Source of the DNA: a virus
Virus record (IMG/VR): IMGVR_UViG_3300032263_000004
Location: 1 to 24,871 of that record
DNA length: 24,871 nt
Direction: 5' to 3' (one strand)
The notes under the pieces are model-generated. The model did no database searches, was not told the origin of the DNA, and saw nothing but the letters and a program-made list of their open reading frames with translations. A program made the position numbers and the translations under genes. Below are positions 4,151 to 17,075 of this stretch, in pieces; the first letter of the stretch is position 1, and each line of letters starts with the position of its first letter.

Positions 4151-4497
4151 GCGTTACTCCTCTCTGCCAGCATGGCGTCGGCGATTGCATAAAGCTGAAA
4201 TGAGTCGGAATCTTCATGTTTCAAAAGAAGCTGGGCGCTTTCTGGGTACTGCCAAGAAATCGCCTGGAAGACAGCAATCAGCTTTTCGCGGTTACAGAAA
4301 TTCACTGCCACACCAAACACGTCGGCTTGCATGGCTTTGTTGCCCCCGGCGTAGCTGCTCAACTTTTCAAGAGCGCAGGCTGGCCCATAGTGTTCGACCA
4401 GCCAATCGCTGAGAACATTGGCGTTTAGGCGACTGTCTTTTGTTGACGCGCCATCTCCAAGTGCTGTGCAAAGCAGCACATCAGTAACAAAACTCAT
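4147..4497 (-). CDS. Conserved-looking phage protein of unknown function (116 aa)
   Basis: This 116-residue protein begins MSFVTDVLLCTALGDG, followed by SRLNANVLSDWLVEHYG. It has an even, globular composition and no membrane segment or recognisable motif. It starts 8 bp after the stop of the HTH gene, with GAGGCGG as a modest ribosome site, and overlaps the next gene by 4 bp. It belongs to the block of small early genes downstream of the recombination genes. No role can be inferred beyond early expression. Confidence 0.7.
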   Translation of the reverse strand: MSFVTDVLLCTALGDGASTKDSRLNANVLSDWLVEHYGPACALEKLSSYAGGNKAMQADVFGVAVNFCNREKLIAVFQAISWQYPESAQLLLKHEDSDSFQLYAIADAMLAERSNA

Positions 4498-4505
4498 TTA
4501 CCGCC

Positions 4506-4685
4506 TCACCTTGTTTTTTCCATTTCAAAGGCTTCCACATCTTTCAGCCAGTAAAACACCTTCAGCGGTCCCAGGCGGAACCACTGCGGCCCGATCCCGC
4601 GCCGTCGCCAATCCCGCAGGGTCGGCTCGCTCAGGCGCAGGCGCTTTGCGACCTCTGCGGTCGTCAAACGCACTGGTGTTTCCAT
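4506..4685 (-). CDS. AlpA/excisionase-like helix-turn-helix DNA-binding protein
   Basis: This 59-residue protein reads METPVRLTTAEVAKRLRLS at its start, then EPTLRDWRRRGIGPQWFRLG and a final KVFYWLKDVEAF segment. This is the compact MerR-like HTH of the excisionase/AlpA group (HTH_17 type), where the second helix carries the DNA contact and the WF(R)LG strand and turn follow. Such proteins act as transcription regulators or recombination directionality factors. It starts in a TGATG overlap with the RecT-like gene, so it is translationally coupled to recombination. No integrase is in the window, so excisionase function is not shown. Confidence 0.82.
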   Translation of the reverse strand: METPVRLTTAEVAKRLRLSEPTLRDWRRRGIGPQWFRLGPLKVFYWLKDVEAFEMEKTR

Positions 4686-5455
4686 CAGATCACCCCCTCT
4701 TCTGCCTCGATGATATCGGGCTCCTCGCGGGCCTGGCGCTCGCGTTCCATTTCCTGCTTGATCTCGTCGACGCGCTTCTTGGCGGCCTCGACTACGCGGG
4801 TGCGCTCGGCGCCCTTGGGCATGCGCGAGATGTCGGCCCGCAGGAGTTCCATACCCTCGATCGTGGCGGTCAGCGCAACGCGCTCCAGCAGCGATTCGAC
4901 GTCCACGACGACCTCTGCCATCTCTACGGGCGCTGCGGGCGATTCTGGGGCGTTCTGGCGCGTCTGGGGGGCGTTGCGAACGGGCTCCATGTCCTGGACT
5001 TCCTCGGGGGTGTAGGTGCCGACCACGACGCCCGGGAACACGGTGCGGATGCCCTCAGAGATGCAGCGCGAGCGCAGCATCTGGCGGGGGTAGGATCGCC
5101 ACGTCGGGTTCTTGGTCAGGCCCGCGTCCTGCGCCATTTTCGTCGTCCACGCGACTTCGACGCTGCCGCCAGACGGGTGCGAGAACTTACCGACCACCTT
5201 GGTGTCGGTGTACTCGCCCCATTCCACCTTGCCGCCTGCGGACTGGAAGCGGGCCAGCATGGCGTCGGCACGCAGGGCGGGGCGGCCGTTGATGACGTGG
5301 TAATCGCGGGCGGCGATTGCCGGGTGCAGGCCCTCGGCCTGGGCGATCAGCATCAAAGCCATCGCCTGGTCTGGGGTTTTGACGCCAAACAGGCCGCTGC
5401 GGGCCACGCTCAAGGCCATGCGTTCGATTTGGTCTACGGGTACGAGTGCGGTCAT
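4685..5455 (-). CDS. RecT-like single-strand annealing recombinase
   Basis: This 256-aa protein has an N-terminal domain (about residues 1-160) with the features GLFGVKTPDQAMALMLIAQ, EGLHPAIAARDYHVINGRP, a Gly-Lys-rich GGKVEW turn, and YPRQMLRSRCISEGIRTVFP at 122-141. These match RecT-type annealing proteins of proteobacterial phages. The C-terminal third (about 185-250) is highly charged helix. RecT proteins coat single-stranded DNA and anneal it to complementary strands during phage recombination and replication. The pairing with a YqaJ exonuclease 280 bp upstream in the same operon strongly supports this role. GGAG precedes ATG 5455. Confidence 0.8.
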   Translation of the reverse strand: MTALVPVDQIERMALSVARSGLFGVKTPDQAMALMLIAQAEGLHPAIAARDYHVINGRPALRADAMLARFQSAGGKVEWGEYTDTKVVGKFSHPSGGSVEVAWTTKMAQDAGLTKNPTWRSYPRQMLRSRCISEGIRTVFPGVVVGTYTPEEVQDMEPVRNAPQTRQNAPESPAAPVEMAEVVVDVESLLERVALTATIEGMELLRADISRMPKGAERTRVVEAAKKRVDEIKQEMERERQAREEPDIIEAEEGVI

Positions 5456-5471
5456 TGGTGTTCTCCGAAAT

Positions 5472-5489
5472 GGGGCGGTTTCCCGCCCC
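5472..5489 (-). repeat. Intercistronic hairpin with GAAA tetraloop
   Basis: On the minus-strand transcript GGGGCGG pairs with CCGCCCC around a GAAA loop, a 7-bp stem closed by a GNRA tetraloop. It lies between the stop at 5496 and the ribosome site of the RecT-like gene. There is no T-run, so it is more likely an mRNA stability or translation element than a terminator. Similar hairpins occur at junctions near 14.6, 15.2, 16.0 and 16.3 kb. Confidence 0.65.
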
Positions 5490-5495
5490 GTGGGT

Positions 5496-5741
5496 TCAGT
5501 CTGTGAGGCCGGCGGGTTCGTCGGTGGGAATCGCCTCGCGGTAGCCCACGGTCTCCACCGGGCATCCTGCGGCCATCAGTTCGATGATGTCGTCGTGGCT
5601 GGCCGGACGGACCTGCAGTTGCGGCATGCAGTGCCTGAGGGCTTCTGCCGGCGTGAACGCGCGGACCAGGCGGTCTTCTTCTCCGGTCTGGCTGATGACG
5701 TAGGTCTTCAGCGTGCGGACGTAGGGGCGCTTTTCGCTCAT
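5496..5741 (-). CDS. Small unknown protein between exonuclease and RecT-like genes (81 aa)
   Basis: This 81-residue protein begins MSEKRPYVRTLKTYVISQ and continues with DRLVRAFTPAEALRHCMPQL. The mixed beta/alpha pattern suggests a small globular domain. It overlaps the YqaJ stop by 4 bp (ATGA), so translation is coupled to the exonuclease. Its place between the two recombination genes suggests a helper role or simple hitch-hiking; no family or catalytic motif is recognised. Confidence 0.75.
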   Translation of the reverse strand: MSEKRPYVRTLKTYVISQTGEEDRLVRAFTPAEALRHCMPQLQVRPASHDDIIELMAAGCPVETVGYREAIPTDEPAGLTD

Positions 5742-6373
5742 TGCTTTCTTTCCGCGAGGCGCCGCAGCGCCTCGACTTGGGTGCCGACCTCTGCCAGAAA
5801 CGAAGTAACGCGACGCTCGAGGTCGGCGATGAACGCCTCGTCACGTTGGATACGCTGGACGTGCAGCTGCAGCGCCTCAGGCATCCGGGGGTCGTAGGAA
5901 ACGAAATCGCACCACTCTCGGCCAGTGATCCACATCTGGCCCTGCACCTGCGGAATGTGGTCTGCCGGCATGCCGTTGAGCAGGGTCTCGATATGCACGG
6001 CGGTACCCCACGGGCATTTGATCTCAATCAGCCCGTCCCAGTCCACCAGGCCGTCAGGCGAACAGCCTGCCATCAGGGTGTCGTGCGCCACGAAGCCGGT
6101 TTCTTCCACGATGCGCCCGGTGACGCGCTCGTAGGCAGCGCGTGCTGCGGGCTCCTGCTCGGTGCCCCAGGTCATGGCCGCGTTCTGGAAGCGCTGAATG
6201 GGCTGTTGGGTCAGGCGCTCGACTACCAGTTCTGTGAGGTAGTCGCGCTGGGCCTGCGCCGGGGCGCCGGATTTCAGCGCGGCGATCGCGTCGCGGAACC
6301 GGCTGGCCGTGACCTTGCCGAGTCTGGCGGCGTACCAGTCTTCAGTGCGCTGGTCGGAGGTTTCGAGGATCAT
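5738..6373 (-). CDS. YqaJ-type viral recombinase exonuclease (lambda-exonuclease fold)
   Basis: This 211-aa protein begins with the family hallmark TEDWYAARLGKVTASRF (residues 10-26), then WGTEQEPAAR (69-78). The PD-(D/E)xK nuclease core is GCSPDGLVDWDGLIEIKCPW (103-122), giving D107, E117 and K119 as probable catalytic residues. Enzymes of this group resect double-stranded ends 5' to 3' to make single strands for the annealing partner. The RecT-like gene lies two genes downstream in the same operon. It is coupled to both neighbours by ATGA overlaps. Length is normal for the family. Confidence 0.93.
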   Translation of the reverse strand: MILETSDQRTEDWYAARLGKVTASRFRDAIAALKSGAPAQAQRDYLTELVVERLTQQPIQRFQNAAMTWGTEQEPAARAAYERVTGRIVEETGFVAHDTLMAGCSPDGLVDWDGLIEIKCPWGTAVHIETLLNGMPADHIPQVQGQMWITGREWCDFVSYDPRMPEALQLHVQRIQRDEAFIADLERRVTSFLAEVGTQVEALRRLAERKQ

Positions 6374-6855
6374 GCGGCCTCCGATGGCGGCTGAATGCGC
6401 GGCTGCTGGTGCTGGTACTGGGGCAAATTGAACTCCTTGGTTGCGTCCTGAAACTCCCGCGTCAGGACCGATACCAGCCTGCGCTGAACCTGCTGCTTGT
6501 GCATCAGCACAGGGTCGGCGGTCACCACCCTGTCGCCGCGCCGGGCAGACCGCAGGATCTTCTTCATGCCGGATTTGCTGCCGTTGATGCCTGCGTCGAT
6601 ACGCTCCTGAGCGTTCAACACGCGGTAGCCGTAGCCATGAACCGATCCCAGATCAACGTCGTGCCGCTCCAGCAGAACTTTGCGCCACGCTGCGACAACG
6701 GTCTTGTATCTGCTGTCGCGGGAGTTGACGTTTTCAATCGCAAAGGCAATCTCTTCGTGAGAGATTTCGGTGCCAACAGACGGCACCCCAAATGCTTCCA
6801 GCAGATTTCGAACATCGGCGCCTGTGGCCGATCCTTTGTGGAAAACAACTGCCAT
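6370..6855 (-). CDS. Conserved-looking early protein of unknown function (161 aa)
   Basis: This 161-aa protein starts MAVVFHKGSATGADVRNLLE and contains a KTVVAAWRKVLLERHDVDLG helix, then GYGYRVLNAQERIDAG and a basic KSGMKKILRSARRGDR stretch. The middle (about residues 45-90) resembles a winged-helix-like DNA-binding layout, with the charged wing at 90-110, but this is only a pattern impression. It lies directly before the exonuclease with a 4-bp overlap, so it is co-translated with recombination genes. A nucleic-acid-binding role is plausible but unproven. Confidence 0.75.
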   Translation of the reverse strand: MAVVFHKGSATGADVRNLLEAFGVPSVGTEISHEEIAFAIENVNSRDSRYKTVVAAWRKVLLERHDVDLGSVHGYGYRVLNAQERIDAGINGSKSGMKKILRSARRGDRVVTADPVLMHKQQVQRRLVSVLTREFQDATKEFNLPQYQHQQPRIQPPSEAA

Positions 6856-6865
6856 TTCTGCCCCC

Positions 6866-7528
6866 TCACAGTGCGGTCACGGTTGCCTTGAACATGCCCC
6901 ACGAACCCGGCGTCTTCGCGCCAGGACGCCAATCGCCGAGGCCCTTGTACCGGCCAGCAAGCGCCAGGATTTCCTTCAGAACCTTCTCTGTGATCTGTTC
7001 GTCCCAGACGTTGATCGTGCCACTGATTGCCCAGCGATCGAAGCACGGGCGCACCCGAATGTGTTTCGCCTGCCCGATCTTTGCGCGCTTGACGTGCAAA
7101 CGGAAGCCCAGGTCGATCGCTTTCGCCTTGTGGTCAGCGAAATCTTTGACGGCCATCAGGGCCTCGATCTCTGACATCGGCACCGTCTTTCCGTCAATCG
7201 TCAGGGGCCAGAACGGCTCCTCGACCATCATGCCGCTTTGCGTTTGCGACTTGAAGGTCTTGCTGCCCTTGGCGCCCGGGACCGGCACCATGCCGCCGCC
7301 CTCCATGATGCAGCGCATCAGGTTGTCCGATGGCATCGCCACGATCTGTTCGTCGTGATACAGGCTGCCGATCCAGCGGAACGCCGGGCTGCGATCGTCG
7401 CCCGCCTTGCTGGACTTCTTGTTGGCCGCGTCAGCCTTCCACTCGTCCATCATGTCGGACCACTCGATGTTGTCCTGATGCATAAGAAGCGCCGTGTCGC
7501 CGACGATTTCAATTGCGTAACTCTTCAT
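6866..7528 (-). CDS. Unknown phage protein with possible RAMP/Cas7-like layout (220 aa)
   Basis: The start is ATG 7528, because GGAG followed by AGACA lies just upstream and the sequence changes from repeat to normal coding there. The frame's extension to 7642 is repeat-derived. The 220 residues begin MKSYAIEIVGDTALLMHQDN, then a charged variable part, MPSDNLMRCIMEGGG (about 81-95), a KTFKSQTQSG loop, and near the end GTINVWDEQITEKVLKEIL followed by GRYKGLGDWRPG and GSWGMFKA. A beta-strand start, a small-residue helix, and a Gly-rich GLGDWRP-G-GMF ending recall RNA-binding RAMP (Cas7-type) proteins. That is a layout resemblance only. It is the first gene after the repeat array and heads the recombination genes. 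Confidence 0.75.
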   Translation of the reverse strand: MKSYAIEIVGDTALLMHQDNIEWSDMMDEWKADAANKKSSKAGDDRSPAFRWIGSLYHDEQIVAMPSDNLMRCIMEGGGMVPVPGAKGSKTFKSQTQSGMMVEEPFWPLTIDGKTVPMSEIEALMAVKDFADHKAKAIDLGFRLHVKRAKIGQAKHIRVRPCFDRWAISGTINVWDEQITEKVLKEILALAGRYKGLGDWRPGAKTPGSWGMFKATVTAL

Positions 7529-7561
7529 GTGTCTCTCCAGTTGATGATGCGCATTGCGCCC

Positions 7562-8059
7562 GTACCATGACCTGCCTTGCCGCGCCAAACCTAGCCCGAC
7601 CGTGCAATGCCACTTTGGTGTTTCCACCGGGATAACCAGCACGCCGATTACCCCGCTGTAAACAGCCCTTGCCGTACCGCGCCGAACCCGACCCTGACCA
7701 GCCCTGCCCTACCGAGTCGTGCCCAGTTGATGTTTCCACCGGGTAACGCGCCATAGACGCGCTGCCCGCTGAGAACAGCCCTTGCCGTGCCACGCCTGAC
7801 CGAGCCGCGCCATGCTCTGCCTAGCCGCGCCAGACCCCGTTGGTGTTTCCACCGGGAGGGACAGCACGCCGCCCAACCCGCTGTAAACAGCCCTTGCCCT
7901 GCCAGACCCAGCCCCGCCTGGCCGCGCCAGACCCCGTCGGTGCAACCGCACCGGGAAGAGCGGCACGCCGCCCAACCCGCTGCATTCGCAGCCCTTGCCG
8001 CGCCGGGCCAGACCGTGCCAGGCCGAGCCGCGCCGTGCCCTGCCAAACCCAGCCCGACC
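7562..8059 (-). repeat. Pentamer/hairpin repeat array, probably transcribed structured RNA
   Basis: The 549-bp gap 7529-8077 holds an ordered array. Read on the minus (transcribed) strand, five tracts of a degenerate pentamer GGYNN alternate with four modules of 57-61 nt. Tracts are at 7995-8059 (13 units), 7894-7933 (8), 7782-7836 (11), 7669-7723 (11) and 7562-7611 (10, less perfect). Each module carries two hairpins: GCTG/CAGC (at 7979-7992, 7880-7891, 7768-7779, 7655-7666) and GGTG/CACC, mostly with a GAAA loop (at 7939-7952, 7842-7853, 7729-7740, 7617-7628). The array begins right after the stop at 8078 and ends before the ribosome site of the gene at 7528. Minus-strand frames through it are open only because the repeats lack stops. 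Confidence 0.85.
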
Positions 8060-8077
8060 ATGCGGGTGTTTCAAAAC

Positions 8078-8281
8078 TTACGCCTCCACTTCCTTCGCCA
8101 CAGACGGCGCGATTTCCACGCCGGGGCAGATTTGCTCGATGCGCCAGCGGATCATTGCCCGCTGAACCATCGCCAGGCCCTGCAGACGCCCGATCTGCTG
8201 GGGCGTCGGGGTGGCGGTCAGATCCAAGAGGCCGTCGAGGATGACGTACATGTCCATGAGGTCGTTCGCATATATCTTCAT
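8078..8281 (-). CDS. Small early protein of unknown function (67 aa)
   Basis: This 67-residue protein begins MKIYANDLMDMYVILDGLLD and is mainly helical, ending in an acidic tail. AAGGAG followed by AGACA precedes ATG 8281, and the upstream gene ends 11 bp away. Its TAA stop (8078-8080) is followed at once by the repeat array. No motif or family is recognised; it could be a small regulatory or host-takeover protein, but nothing in the sequence proves that. Confidence 0.75.
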   Translation of the reverse strand: MKIYANDLMDMYVILDGLLDLTATPTPQQIGRLQGLAMVQRAMIRWRIEQICPGVEIAPSVAKEVEA

Positions 8282-8292
8282 GCTGTCTCTCC

Positions 8293-8721
8293 TTAGTACC
8301 AGTGATCGGCGTCGTCTAAGTCACGCTCGGGCGGGCTGAAATCGTCGTAGCGCTGGGCGTCGTAGATATCCCACGCCTCATCCTCAATCCTGCCGTCCAT
8401 TGCAGCGGCAGCGCGCACGCGCATCTCTGCGGCAGCGGCCAGCACCTGCTGATCAGTGCCGTTGAACAGCGCCACCAGCAGGGCGCGGGTGCTGGCCTTC
8501 GGTGCGTCGAGCTTCGACACGTCGATCGAAACGTCCGGGCCGTTGCCCAGCACCTCCGAGAGCCACTCGTCCAGGTCAATGGCGTGAGAGAACACGCGCC
8601 GTTGCGCCTCGTCGTAGACCTCCTCGGGGAGGTCGTAGGATGGCGTGCGCGGGTCGGCGGGATGGCCGTGATACGGGCCGTAGTCCGAATCGTATGATCC
8701 GAAGCGGGGTTCGTGTCGCAT
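8293..8721 (-). CDS. First gene of the leftward early operon, unknown function (142 aa)
   Basis: This 142-aa protein has a His/Tyr/Pro-rich N-terminus (MRHEPRFGSYDSDYGPYHGH), a helical Ala-rich centre (about residues 75-110) and a very acidic C-terminus (PPERDLDDADHWY). A strong ribosome site AGGAG with AGACA precedes ATG 8721. It is the promoter-proximal gene of the minus-strand operon, so it is probably expressed first and strongly. The acidic C-terminus could be a DNA-mimic or protein-interaction feature, but this is speculation; no family is recognised. Confidence 0.75.
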   Translation of the reverse strand: MRHEPRFGSYDSDYGPYHGHPADPRTPSYDLPEEVYDEAQRRVFSHAIDLDEWLSEVLGNGPDVSIDVSKLDAPKASTRALLVALFNGTDQQVLAAAAEMRVRAAAAMDGRIEDEAWDIYDAQRYDDFSPPERDLDDADHWY

Positions 8722-8850: not shown

Positions 8851-8877
8851 CGCGTGCCGCACTTAGAGGAGCAGACA

Positions 8878-9159
8878 GTGGAACTGACGAAACGACAGGC
8901 GCAGATCGTCGATGTCATCGAGCGACGCGGCCTGATTTCACTGACCGACCTGTCGGCAGAGACAGGGCTTACGAAACACAACCTGCGCAGCCATCTGGGC
9001 ACACTGCGGCGCATCGGCCGCATCGAGCCCACCACGCGAGGAGGGCGCAGCAAGTGGAAGATCGCGCCCTATCGGCACTACTTCGCGCCGTTGGAGCAGG
9101 TTCCATCGGTTTGGCATTACGCGGCGCGGTGCGCCTGGGAAAGGTGGGCACGAGGATGA
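8878..9159 (+). CDS. Winged helix-turn-helix DNA-binding protein, probable regulator
   Basis: This 93-aa protein starts with GTG at 8878, chosen because AGAGGAG lies 6 bp upstream; an alternative GTG at 8854 has no such site. The sequence TKRQAQIVDVIERRGLISLT, then DLSAETGLTKHNLRSHLGTL and GRIEPTTRGGRSKWK, is a typical winged HTH. The recognition helix is around KHNLRSHLGTLRRIG and the wing is the Gly-Gly turn. It is the first gene of the rightward operon and faces the leftward operon across a 156-bp control region, so regulation of those divergent promoters is likely. It overlaps the next gene by 4 bp. Confidence 0.8.
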   Translation: MELTKRQAQIVDVIERRGLISLTDLSAETGLTKHNLRSHLGTLRRIGRIEPTTRGGRSKWKIAPYRHYFAPLEQVPSVWHYAARCAWERWARG

Positions 9160-16678: not shown

Positions 16679-16888
16679 AATACCACTAATACCCCTTATA
16701 ACCAACGATAGGTTTGGAAAGTCCTCGGGGGTTGAGTAAAAGAAAAGGTGAGGGGTATCAGGGGTATTGAGGGGTATTGAGGGGTATCGGGGGGTATTGG
16801 CCGGGGGTATCGCTCCCGATACCACTAATACCCACGGGTATCGCAAGTAGGCGCAGGGCATTGATACCACTAATGGCTAGGGGTATCA
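16679..16888. repeat. Iteron-like repeat cluster in the 716-bp control region
   Basis: Five tandem 10-bp units of the type GGGGTATTGA run in exact register over 16751-16800, with a further GGGGTAT at 16804-16810. TACCACTAAT is repeated at 16681-16690, 16820-16829 and 16865-16874; the first two are followed by ACCC. GGTATCA half-sites pair in opposite orientation (TGATACC 16862-16868 with GGTATCA 16882-16888). AAAGTCCTCGG occurs at 16718-16728 and 16901-16911. The 10-bp phase places all copies on one helix face, as in iterons or cooperative operators. No coding gene is credible here. Confidence 0.8.
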
Positions 16889-17001: not shown

Positions 17002-17056
17002 GATCGTCAGCACGCTGATCGTCAGCACACGGATGATCGGTAGGCTGATCGTCAGC
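17002..17056. promoter_or_regulatory. Repeated palindromic site GCTGATCGTCAGC, candidate operators
   Basis: The 13-bp inverted repeat GCTGATCGTCAGC is perfect at 17014-17026 and 17044-17056, centres 30 bp apart. A partial copy with the right half (GATCGTCAGC) lies at 17002-17011. The bases after each site (AC or ACACGG) are also repeated. These look like sites for a dimeric repressor controlling the rightward packaging operon or the accessory operon. Confidence 0.65.
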
Positions 17057-17075
17057 ACACGGACGGTATACGGAG

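What the first reader, a model, noticed from the sequence alone, without database searches (positions are those of the whole stretch)
7562..8059. Alternating pentamer tracts and 57-61-nt hairpin modules inside the early operon
Five tracts of GGYNN pentamers (13, 8, 11, 11 and 10 units, on the transcribed strand) alternate with four modules of nearly equal length. GG every 5 nt with 3-nt gaps allows two-layer G-quadruplexes, and also offers a regular ladder for a multimeric RNA-binding protein. Order, phase and module length are kept although bases vary, which argues for selection on structure rather than recent slippage. I know no described function for such an array.
Basis: partly seen in the sequence, partly recalled or inferred. 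Interest (0 to 1): 0.78.

Follow-up and report, generated by a model that had tools for sequence, protein, structure and literature searches.

The report
Phage VIPR guide-RNA array
The repeat array is a row of five guide RNAs of a VIPR system, a newly described CRISPR-like weapon that phages use to silence rival phages, and some of its guides can be decoded here to point at genes of one particular rival phage.

Summary
The minus strand of 8062-7549 carries five tracts of YNNGG/GGYNN units separated by four structured modules. The next gene (7528-6866) is a Vipr protein: its family profile matches PDB 36pp, "SUSP1 Vipr protein", at E = 1.9e-40, and its AlphaFold model's significant fold hits are all CRISPR RAMP complexes. 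The gene after it (6855-6370) shares a phage family with the gene next to vipr in phage SUSP1. This is the architecture of Viral Interference Programmable Repeat systems (PMC13142463, 2026 preprint): each tract plus module is a guide RNA whose NN pairs read DNA with one base skipped. I tested that rule: 6 of 22 guides of this clade match one 53-kb phage contig at skip 1, against 0 at skips 0, 2 or 3 and a mean of 0.13 for shuffled guides. Targets include a Sak4 recombinase, a putative HTH regulator gene and the terminase, with the skip at codon wobble positions. The guide next to vipr is unusual: its NN string is conserved while the other guides turn over, and it spells the Sak4 motif LFANY. 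A new member of a very recently described kind, with decoded targets and a fixed-plus-variable guide layout.

The parts
7993..8062 (-). vrRNA 1 guide tract, 14 YNNGG units; NN = AT CG TG TT AG AC GC TC CT AC CT CC GC AA
   Evidence: predicted target: HTH gene of phage contig G001/L165, also L168 and L337
7939..7992 (-). vrRNA 1 3' tail (three hairpins P1-P2-P3)
7892..7936 (-). vrRNA 2 guide tract, 9 units; NN = GG CT GC CA GG TG CT AG AA
   Evidence: no convincing target found
7842..7891 (-). vrRNA 2 3' tail
7780..7839 (-). vrRNA 3 guide tract, 12 units (1 imperfect); NN = GG CT GC TA AG AT GC TC CA GT AC AA
   Evidence: weak target in a 1543-aa repetitive protein of G001 (18/22)
7729..7779 (-). 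vrRNA 3 3' tail
7667..7726 (-). vrRNA 4 guide tract, 12 units (2 imperfect); NN = TG AC TC AG AG TG AG CG TC GC AC AA
   Evidence: its 119 exact 8-unit hits look like chance matches, mostly not in wobble phase
7617..7666 (-). vrRNA 4 3' tail
7549..7614 (-). vipr-proximal vrRNA 5: tract of 9-11 units (core NN = AC CG TA TT GC AA AG AT AC) plus a minimal tail hairpin GCGCAATGCGC
   Evidence: NN conserved in relatives; predicted target is the Sak4 LFANY motif
6866..7528 (-). vipr gene, 220 aa RAMP-fold guide-binding protein (phrog_4652)
6370..6855 (-). vap1-like accessory gene, 161 aa (phrog_5926, the family of the SUSP1 gene just after vipr)
5738..6373 (-). YqaJ-type exonuclease, downstream neighbour in the operon (context, not part of VIPR)
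4685..5455 (-). RecT annealase, the phage's own SSAP (context; a Sak4-targeting guide would spare it)

Best explanation
The feature is a VIPR locus: five vrRNA guides (YNNGG tract plus 3' tail) encoded upstream of, and read in the same direction as, vipr and a vap1-like gene. The inferred mechanism is that the transcript is processed into roughly 95-125 nt vrRNAs (the fifth is shorter), that Vipr subunits line up along the tract, probably one pentamer per subunit, and that the GGY bases are held by protein while the NN pairs base-pair with double-stranded DNA at one-base skips. The complex then represses the bound gene of a rival phage. In this clade the decoded targets are a Sak4 single-strand annealing protein, a putative HTH regulator and the terminase large subunit of a competing temperate phage. 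The vipr-proximal guide is a conserved guide against Sak4 recombinases, while the distal guides turn over. Shown here: sequence architecture, protein homology and fold, tail structure, and target matches under the 1-nt skip rule. Inferred from PMC13142463: processing, RNP formation and repression.
For: The family profile of the adjacent gene matches PDB 36pp 'SUSP1 Vipr protein' at E = 1.9e-40 and the single window protein matches it at 1.3e-9. The AlphaFold2 model has pLDDT 93.8, and all 32 PDB fold matches at E <= 0.001 are CRISPR RAMP-containing complexes. In loci fetched only by (GGYNN)x8, 86 of 120 encode this protein against 1 of 164 control loci, and tracts lie on the gene's strand 378 to 5. 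The paper defines VIPR by exactly these parts. The next gene shares phrog_5926 with the SUSP1 gene that follows vipr. Tails keep three hairpins through compensatory and length changes. Targets: 6 of 22 clade guides match contig G001 at E < 0.01 with skip 1, 0 with skips 0, 2 or 3, mean 0.13 (max 1) with unit order shuffled; control loci 15 of 1672 pairs, never more than one per locus; no self-target in the window. All five sites checked have the skip at the wobble position.
Against: No transcript or protein data exist for this contig. The window protein is distant from SUSP1 Vipr (28.5% identity), and its vap1-like gene reaches phrog_5926 only at E = 1.8e-4. Guides 2 and 4 have no convincing target, and guide 3 only a weak one in a repetitive gene. 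G001 was first found through guide 1, so guide 1's own score there is not independent evidence; the other guides' scores are. Several clade contigs are near-identical, so the guide sets are fewer than the contig count.
Confidence: 0.95

Rival explanations
1. The tracts are structural RNA or DNA elements (two-layer G-quadruplexes) that control transcription or translation of the recombination operon in cis.
For: GG every five bases; one of five tracts is predicted to form a quadruplex when that is allowed.
Against: Four of five tracts are not; position 3 is 95% pyrimidine in tracts defined by GGNNN alone (although the loci were fetched with a Y pattern); NN pairs match rival-phage genes under a skip-1 code; arrays lie upstream or downstream of the gene.
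Confidence: 0.02
2. The vipr-proximal tract (7614-7549) is not a guide but an autoregulatory leader: Vipr binds it in its own mRNA and limits translation. (This concerns tract 5 only and is compatible with tracts 1-4 being guides.)
For: It is conserved, partly degenerate, lies just before the vipr ribosome-binding site and lacks P2 and P3 of the tail.
Against: Its NN string scores above 200 of 200 shuffles on Sak4 genes and mostly lands on the same LFANY motif in wobble phase, for two different versions of the tract; 17/18 match in G001, 0 of 1000 shuffles. Both roles could hold together.
Confidence: 0.2
3. A CRISPR-like repeat-spacer array in which the modules are repeats and the tracts are spacers.
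For: Alternating variable and conserved segments next to a RAMP-fold protein.
Against: The spacers have a fixed GGY lattice, the repeats differ between copies, targets fit only with a skip, and VIPR already describes this layout.
Confidence: 0.01

Closest known systems
VIPR systems (Viral Interference Programmable Repeat), type II as in Escherichia phage SUSP1 and a Pseudomonas fulva prophage (PMC13142463)
   Same: Vipr RAMP protein, vrRNAs of 9-16 YNNGG units with a structured 3' tail, vap1-family neighbour, 1-nt skip targeting with the skip at codon wobble, targets in other phages.
   Different: Five guides all upstream of vipr (SUSP1 has one upstream and three downstream); the tail sequence differs from SUSP1; the locus is linked to a RecT/YqaJ operon; the last guide is conserved and has a shortened tail; the targets are Sak4, an HTH gene and TerL of a different phage.
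Class 1 CRISPR-Cas RAMP complexes (Csm3/Cas7, types III and VII)
   Same: Related protein fold; RAMP proteins that line up on a guide RNA.
   Different: No cas genes or CRISPR repeats seen beside the array; a 5-nt guide lattice read noncontiguously instead of contiguous pairing with every sixth base unpaired.
TRAP / trp RNA-binding attenuation protein sites (from general knowledge)
   Same: About 11 short repeats at roughly 5-nt spacing bound by a multimer.
   Different: NAG rather than GGY triplets, a ring protein of another fold, amino-acid sensing; no relation by sequence or fold was found here.

Membership tests
VIPR | Vipr protein: RAMP homologue with RRM core, G-loop and thumb | tested here: met
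   36pp match E = 1.9e-40; RAMP-complex fold hits; C-terminal glycine/arginine positions G192, G196, R201, G211 conserved in at least 90% of 87 homologues. The thumb was not examined separately.
VIPR | vrRNAs of 9-16 tandem YNNGG units with conserved GGY and hypervariable NN | tested here: met
   14, 9, 12, 12 and 9-11 units; distal guides differ between relatives while GGY stays. The vipr-proximal guide is an exception: its NN is conserved.
VIPR | Structured, conserved 3' tail after each tract | tested here: met
   Three hairpins kept with compensatory changes in 24 tails; the fifth guide keeps only a short first hairpin. A pseudoknot, reported for SUSP1, was not tested.
VIPR | vipr-accessory (vap) gene next to vipr | tested here: met
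   phrog_5926: window E = 1.8e-4, SUSP1 neighbour 1.1e-75, LESphi2 neighbour 4.1e-31. That the SUSP1 neighbour is vap1 is inferred from its position.
VIPR | NN pairs specify DNA targets with a 1-nt skip, usually in other mobile elements | tested here: met
   Skip-1 excess over skips 0, 2, 3 and shuffles; wobble phase; guides 2 and 4 remain without targets.
VIPR | vrRNAs expressed as about 100-nt RNAs and bound by Vipr | not testable with these tools
   Needs RNA sequencing and pull-down.
VIPR | Repression of the targeted gene | not testable with these tools
   Needs a reporter or infection assay.
CRISPR-Cas | Near-identical direct repeats with unrelated contiguous spacers and cas genes | tested here: not met
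   Modules differ between copies; tracts follow a GGY lattice; no cas genes among the neighbours examined.
Rfam RNA families | Match above gathering score | tested here: not met
   Only a sub-threshold togavirus frameshift-element hit (22.8 bits against 40) in 7400-8300.

The most novel reading that the evidence does not exclude
VIPR arrays of this clade have a two-part memory: a fixed guide beside vipr, kept across relatives, that targets a conserved codon motif (LFANY) of rival Sak4 recombinases, so that RecT-using phages disable the recombination system of Sak4-using phages, plus a variable set of distal guides that is exchanged between close relatives. Because the code skips wobble bases, the fixed guide can recognise a protein motif rather than one DNA sequence.
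Probability: 0.5. Interest if true: 0.7.

Novelty: new member of a known kind. Interest (0 to 1): 0.58.

Why it matters
VIPR was described in a preprint only months ago, with detailed work on two clades. Here an array picked out blind from raw sequence can be decoded with the published rule and points to genes of one rival phage, which is independent computational support for the code. The conserved Sak4-directed guide makes a clear, testable claim about what phages fight over (recombination) and about how a wobble-skipping code can aim at protein motifs. The large number of GGYNN arrays in uncultivated phages suggests that the system is common.

Tried and rejected
Rfam search: nothing above threshold. 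Literature searches on pentamer repeats found nothing until the PDB name led to the VIPR preprint. TRAP-like and RecT-binding-site ideas were dropped once the Vipr match appeared. Guide 3 and guide 2 scans of viral contigs gave 2 and 12 exact 8-unit hits without convincing extension. Guide 4 gave 119 hits, mostly outside wobble phase, so treated as chance. One guide 5 scan used a wrongly written pattern (one base missing in the CG unit) and is not used as evidence of absence. The 20-base guide 1 core was absent from the bacterial genome collection. RNAalifold on the MAFFT alignment preferred a single long hairpin, in part because P3 stems of different lengths were misaligned; a per-sequence parse shows P1-P2-P3 in the tails, but the long hairpin is the predicted minimum for several single tails, and a switch or loop-loop contact is not excluded. 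Plasmid search with Vipr: no match.

Full report
What is there. On the minus strand of 8062-7549 the window carries five tracts of pentamers (GGYNN, equivalently YNNGG) and four modules between them. Five consecutive GGYNN units occur 18 times, all here on one strand, against 0.01 expected in shuffles.

Who has it. In those 120 loci, fetched by the pentamers alone, 86 encode a homologue of the gene next to the array, window 7528-6866, against 1 of 164 control loci fetched by unrelated patterns. Over all loci with that gene, tracts lie near it and on its strand in 378 of 383 cases. The modules differ between lineages; the GGY lattice does not.

What the gene is. All 87 homologues aligned match phrog_4652, of unknown function. 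A profile of them matches PDB entry 36pp, "SUSP1 Vipr protein", at E = 1.9e-40; the window protein alone matches at 1.3e-9. Its AlphaFold2 model is confident (pLDDT 93.8), and every PDB fold hit at E <= 0.001 is a chain of a CRISPR RAMP complex (that library predates 36pp). The preprint that describes SUSP1 Vipr (PMC13142463) defines VIPR: a RAMP protein, guide RNAs of 9-16 YNNGG repeats with a structured tail, a vap accessory gene, and DNA recognition by the NN pairs with one base skipped. The gene after vipr here (6855-6370) matches phrog_5926 at 1.8e-4, the family of the SUSP1 gene after vipr (1.1e-75) and of its neighbour in Pseudomonas phage LESphi2 (4.1e-31). That makes this a VIPR locus, most likely type II.

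The tails. Twenty-four distinct tails from this and related clades can be parsed as three consecutive hairpins with compensatory changes, for example GCTG/CAGC to GCTA/TAGC in P1 and GGTG/CACC to GGTGAC/GTCACC or GGTA/TACC in P3, with a middle stem whose sequence is almost free. The fifth, vipr-proximal guide keeps only a short first hairpin.

Reading the guides. I decoded 22 distinct guides of the window's clade and scored them against DNA with 0-3 skipped bases. An exact scan with eight units of guide 1 found four viral contigs; in two of them the match extends to ten units (20 of 20 bases) in one gene, a putative HTH protein with the motif GSVSDAVLKHL. One of these is a 53-kb phage contig (L165/G001) with an integrase, a Sak4-like annealing protein, Cas4-type exonuclease, helicase and terminase genes. 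The same contig is then matched by guide 5 (17 of 18 core bases; 0 of 1000 shuffles reach it) in the Sak4 gene, and by two guides of the sister phage L016 and one of L018, in the same HTH gene and in the terminase. L016's first guide matches the HTH gene of L337 at 21 of 22. In total 6 of 22 guides match this contig at E < 0.01 with skip 1, none with skips 0, 2 or 3, and 0.13 on average (maximum 1) after shuffling unit order. In 76 other loci the rate is 15 of 1672, never more than one per locus. All five sites examined read the target gene with the skipped base at the third codon position, as the preprint reports for SUSP1. The window itself has no match, so it does not target itself. Guide 1's own score in this contig is biased, because it was used to find it; guide 3's match is weak and lies in a repetitive gene.

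A fixed guide. In the sister group, fourteen contigs share one identical NN string in the vipr-proximal guide while the guides before it fall into at least six different sets; the window, L016 and L039 share another string there while their other guides differ. Some of these contigs are near-identical to each other, so independent cases are fewer. The two strings share the core TA TT GC AA AG. Read on the opposite strand as codons they spell VILFANYRV and AD(I/M)VLFANY (the latter with D/E and N/K ambiguity), and on ten Sak4 genes both score above all 200 shuffles, with most best hits on that motif in wobble phase. The clade contigs carry YqaJ and RecT homologues in most cases where the contig reaches that far, and none shows Sak4. 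The simplest reading is a permanent guide against rival Sak4 recombination systems; an additional role as a leader that limits vipr expression is not excluded.

Limits. Everything about processing, complex formation and repression is taken from the preprint, not shown for this contig. The host is unknown: the only named bacterial genomes with the 21-mer are Pseudomonas typographi and P. juntendi, whose tails resemble those of a related clade, and the window has no close relative among named phages.

Noticed in passing
L045, L068, L103, L110, L117 and others (34 of 120 loci): Long GGYNN arrays without a Vipr homologue recognisable by the profile; some contigs are short, others may carry divergent Vipr types.
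   Followed up: no
L081:6250-7515, L067:1953-3020: Pentamer tracts that lie inside the called Vipr open reading frame, possibly wrong starts or arrays overlapping the coding region.
   Followed up: no
L065 and L112: Very large arrays with uninterrupted runs up to 42 and 28 pentamers, unlike the window.
   Followed up: no
window 16749-16799 and 17002-17058: Two other tandem repeats (10-bp TGAGGGGTAT x5.2; 15-bp GATCGTCAGCACGCT x3.8) before the late genes.
   Followed up: no
vrRNA tails, e.g. window 7617-7666: P1 and P3 loops are often complementary (UUU/AAA, swapped to AA/UU in tail 1), and a long-hairpin alternative is close in energy: possible loop-loop contact or switch.
   Followed up: partly
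L044 (Pseudomonas phage LESphi2, OQ594955.1 about 4403-6329): A VIPR locus with a phrog_5926 neighbour lies beside the CI repressor and a gene annotated sigma factor; its vipr gene is annotated hypothetical.
   Followed up: partly
window 8854-9159: Small HTH-like protein encoded on the opposite strand at the divergent junction, a candidate regulator of the two operons.
   Followed up: no
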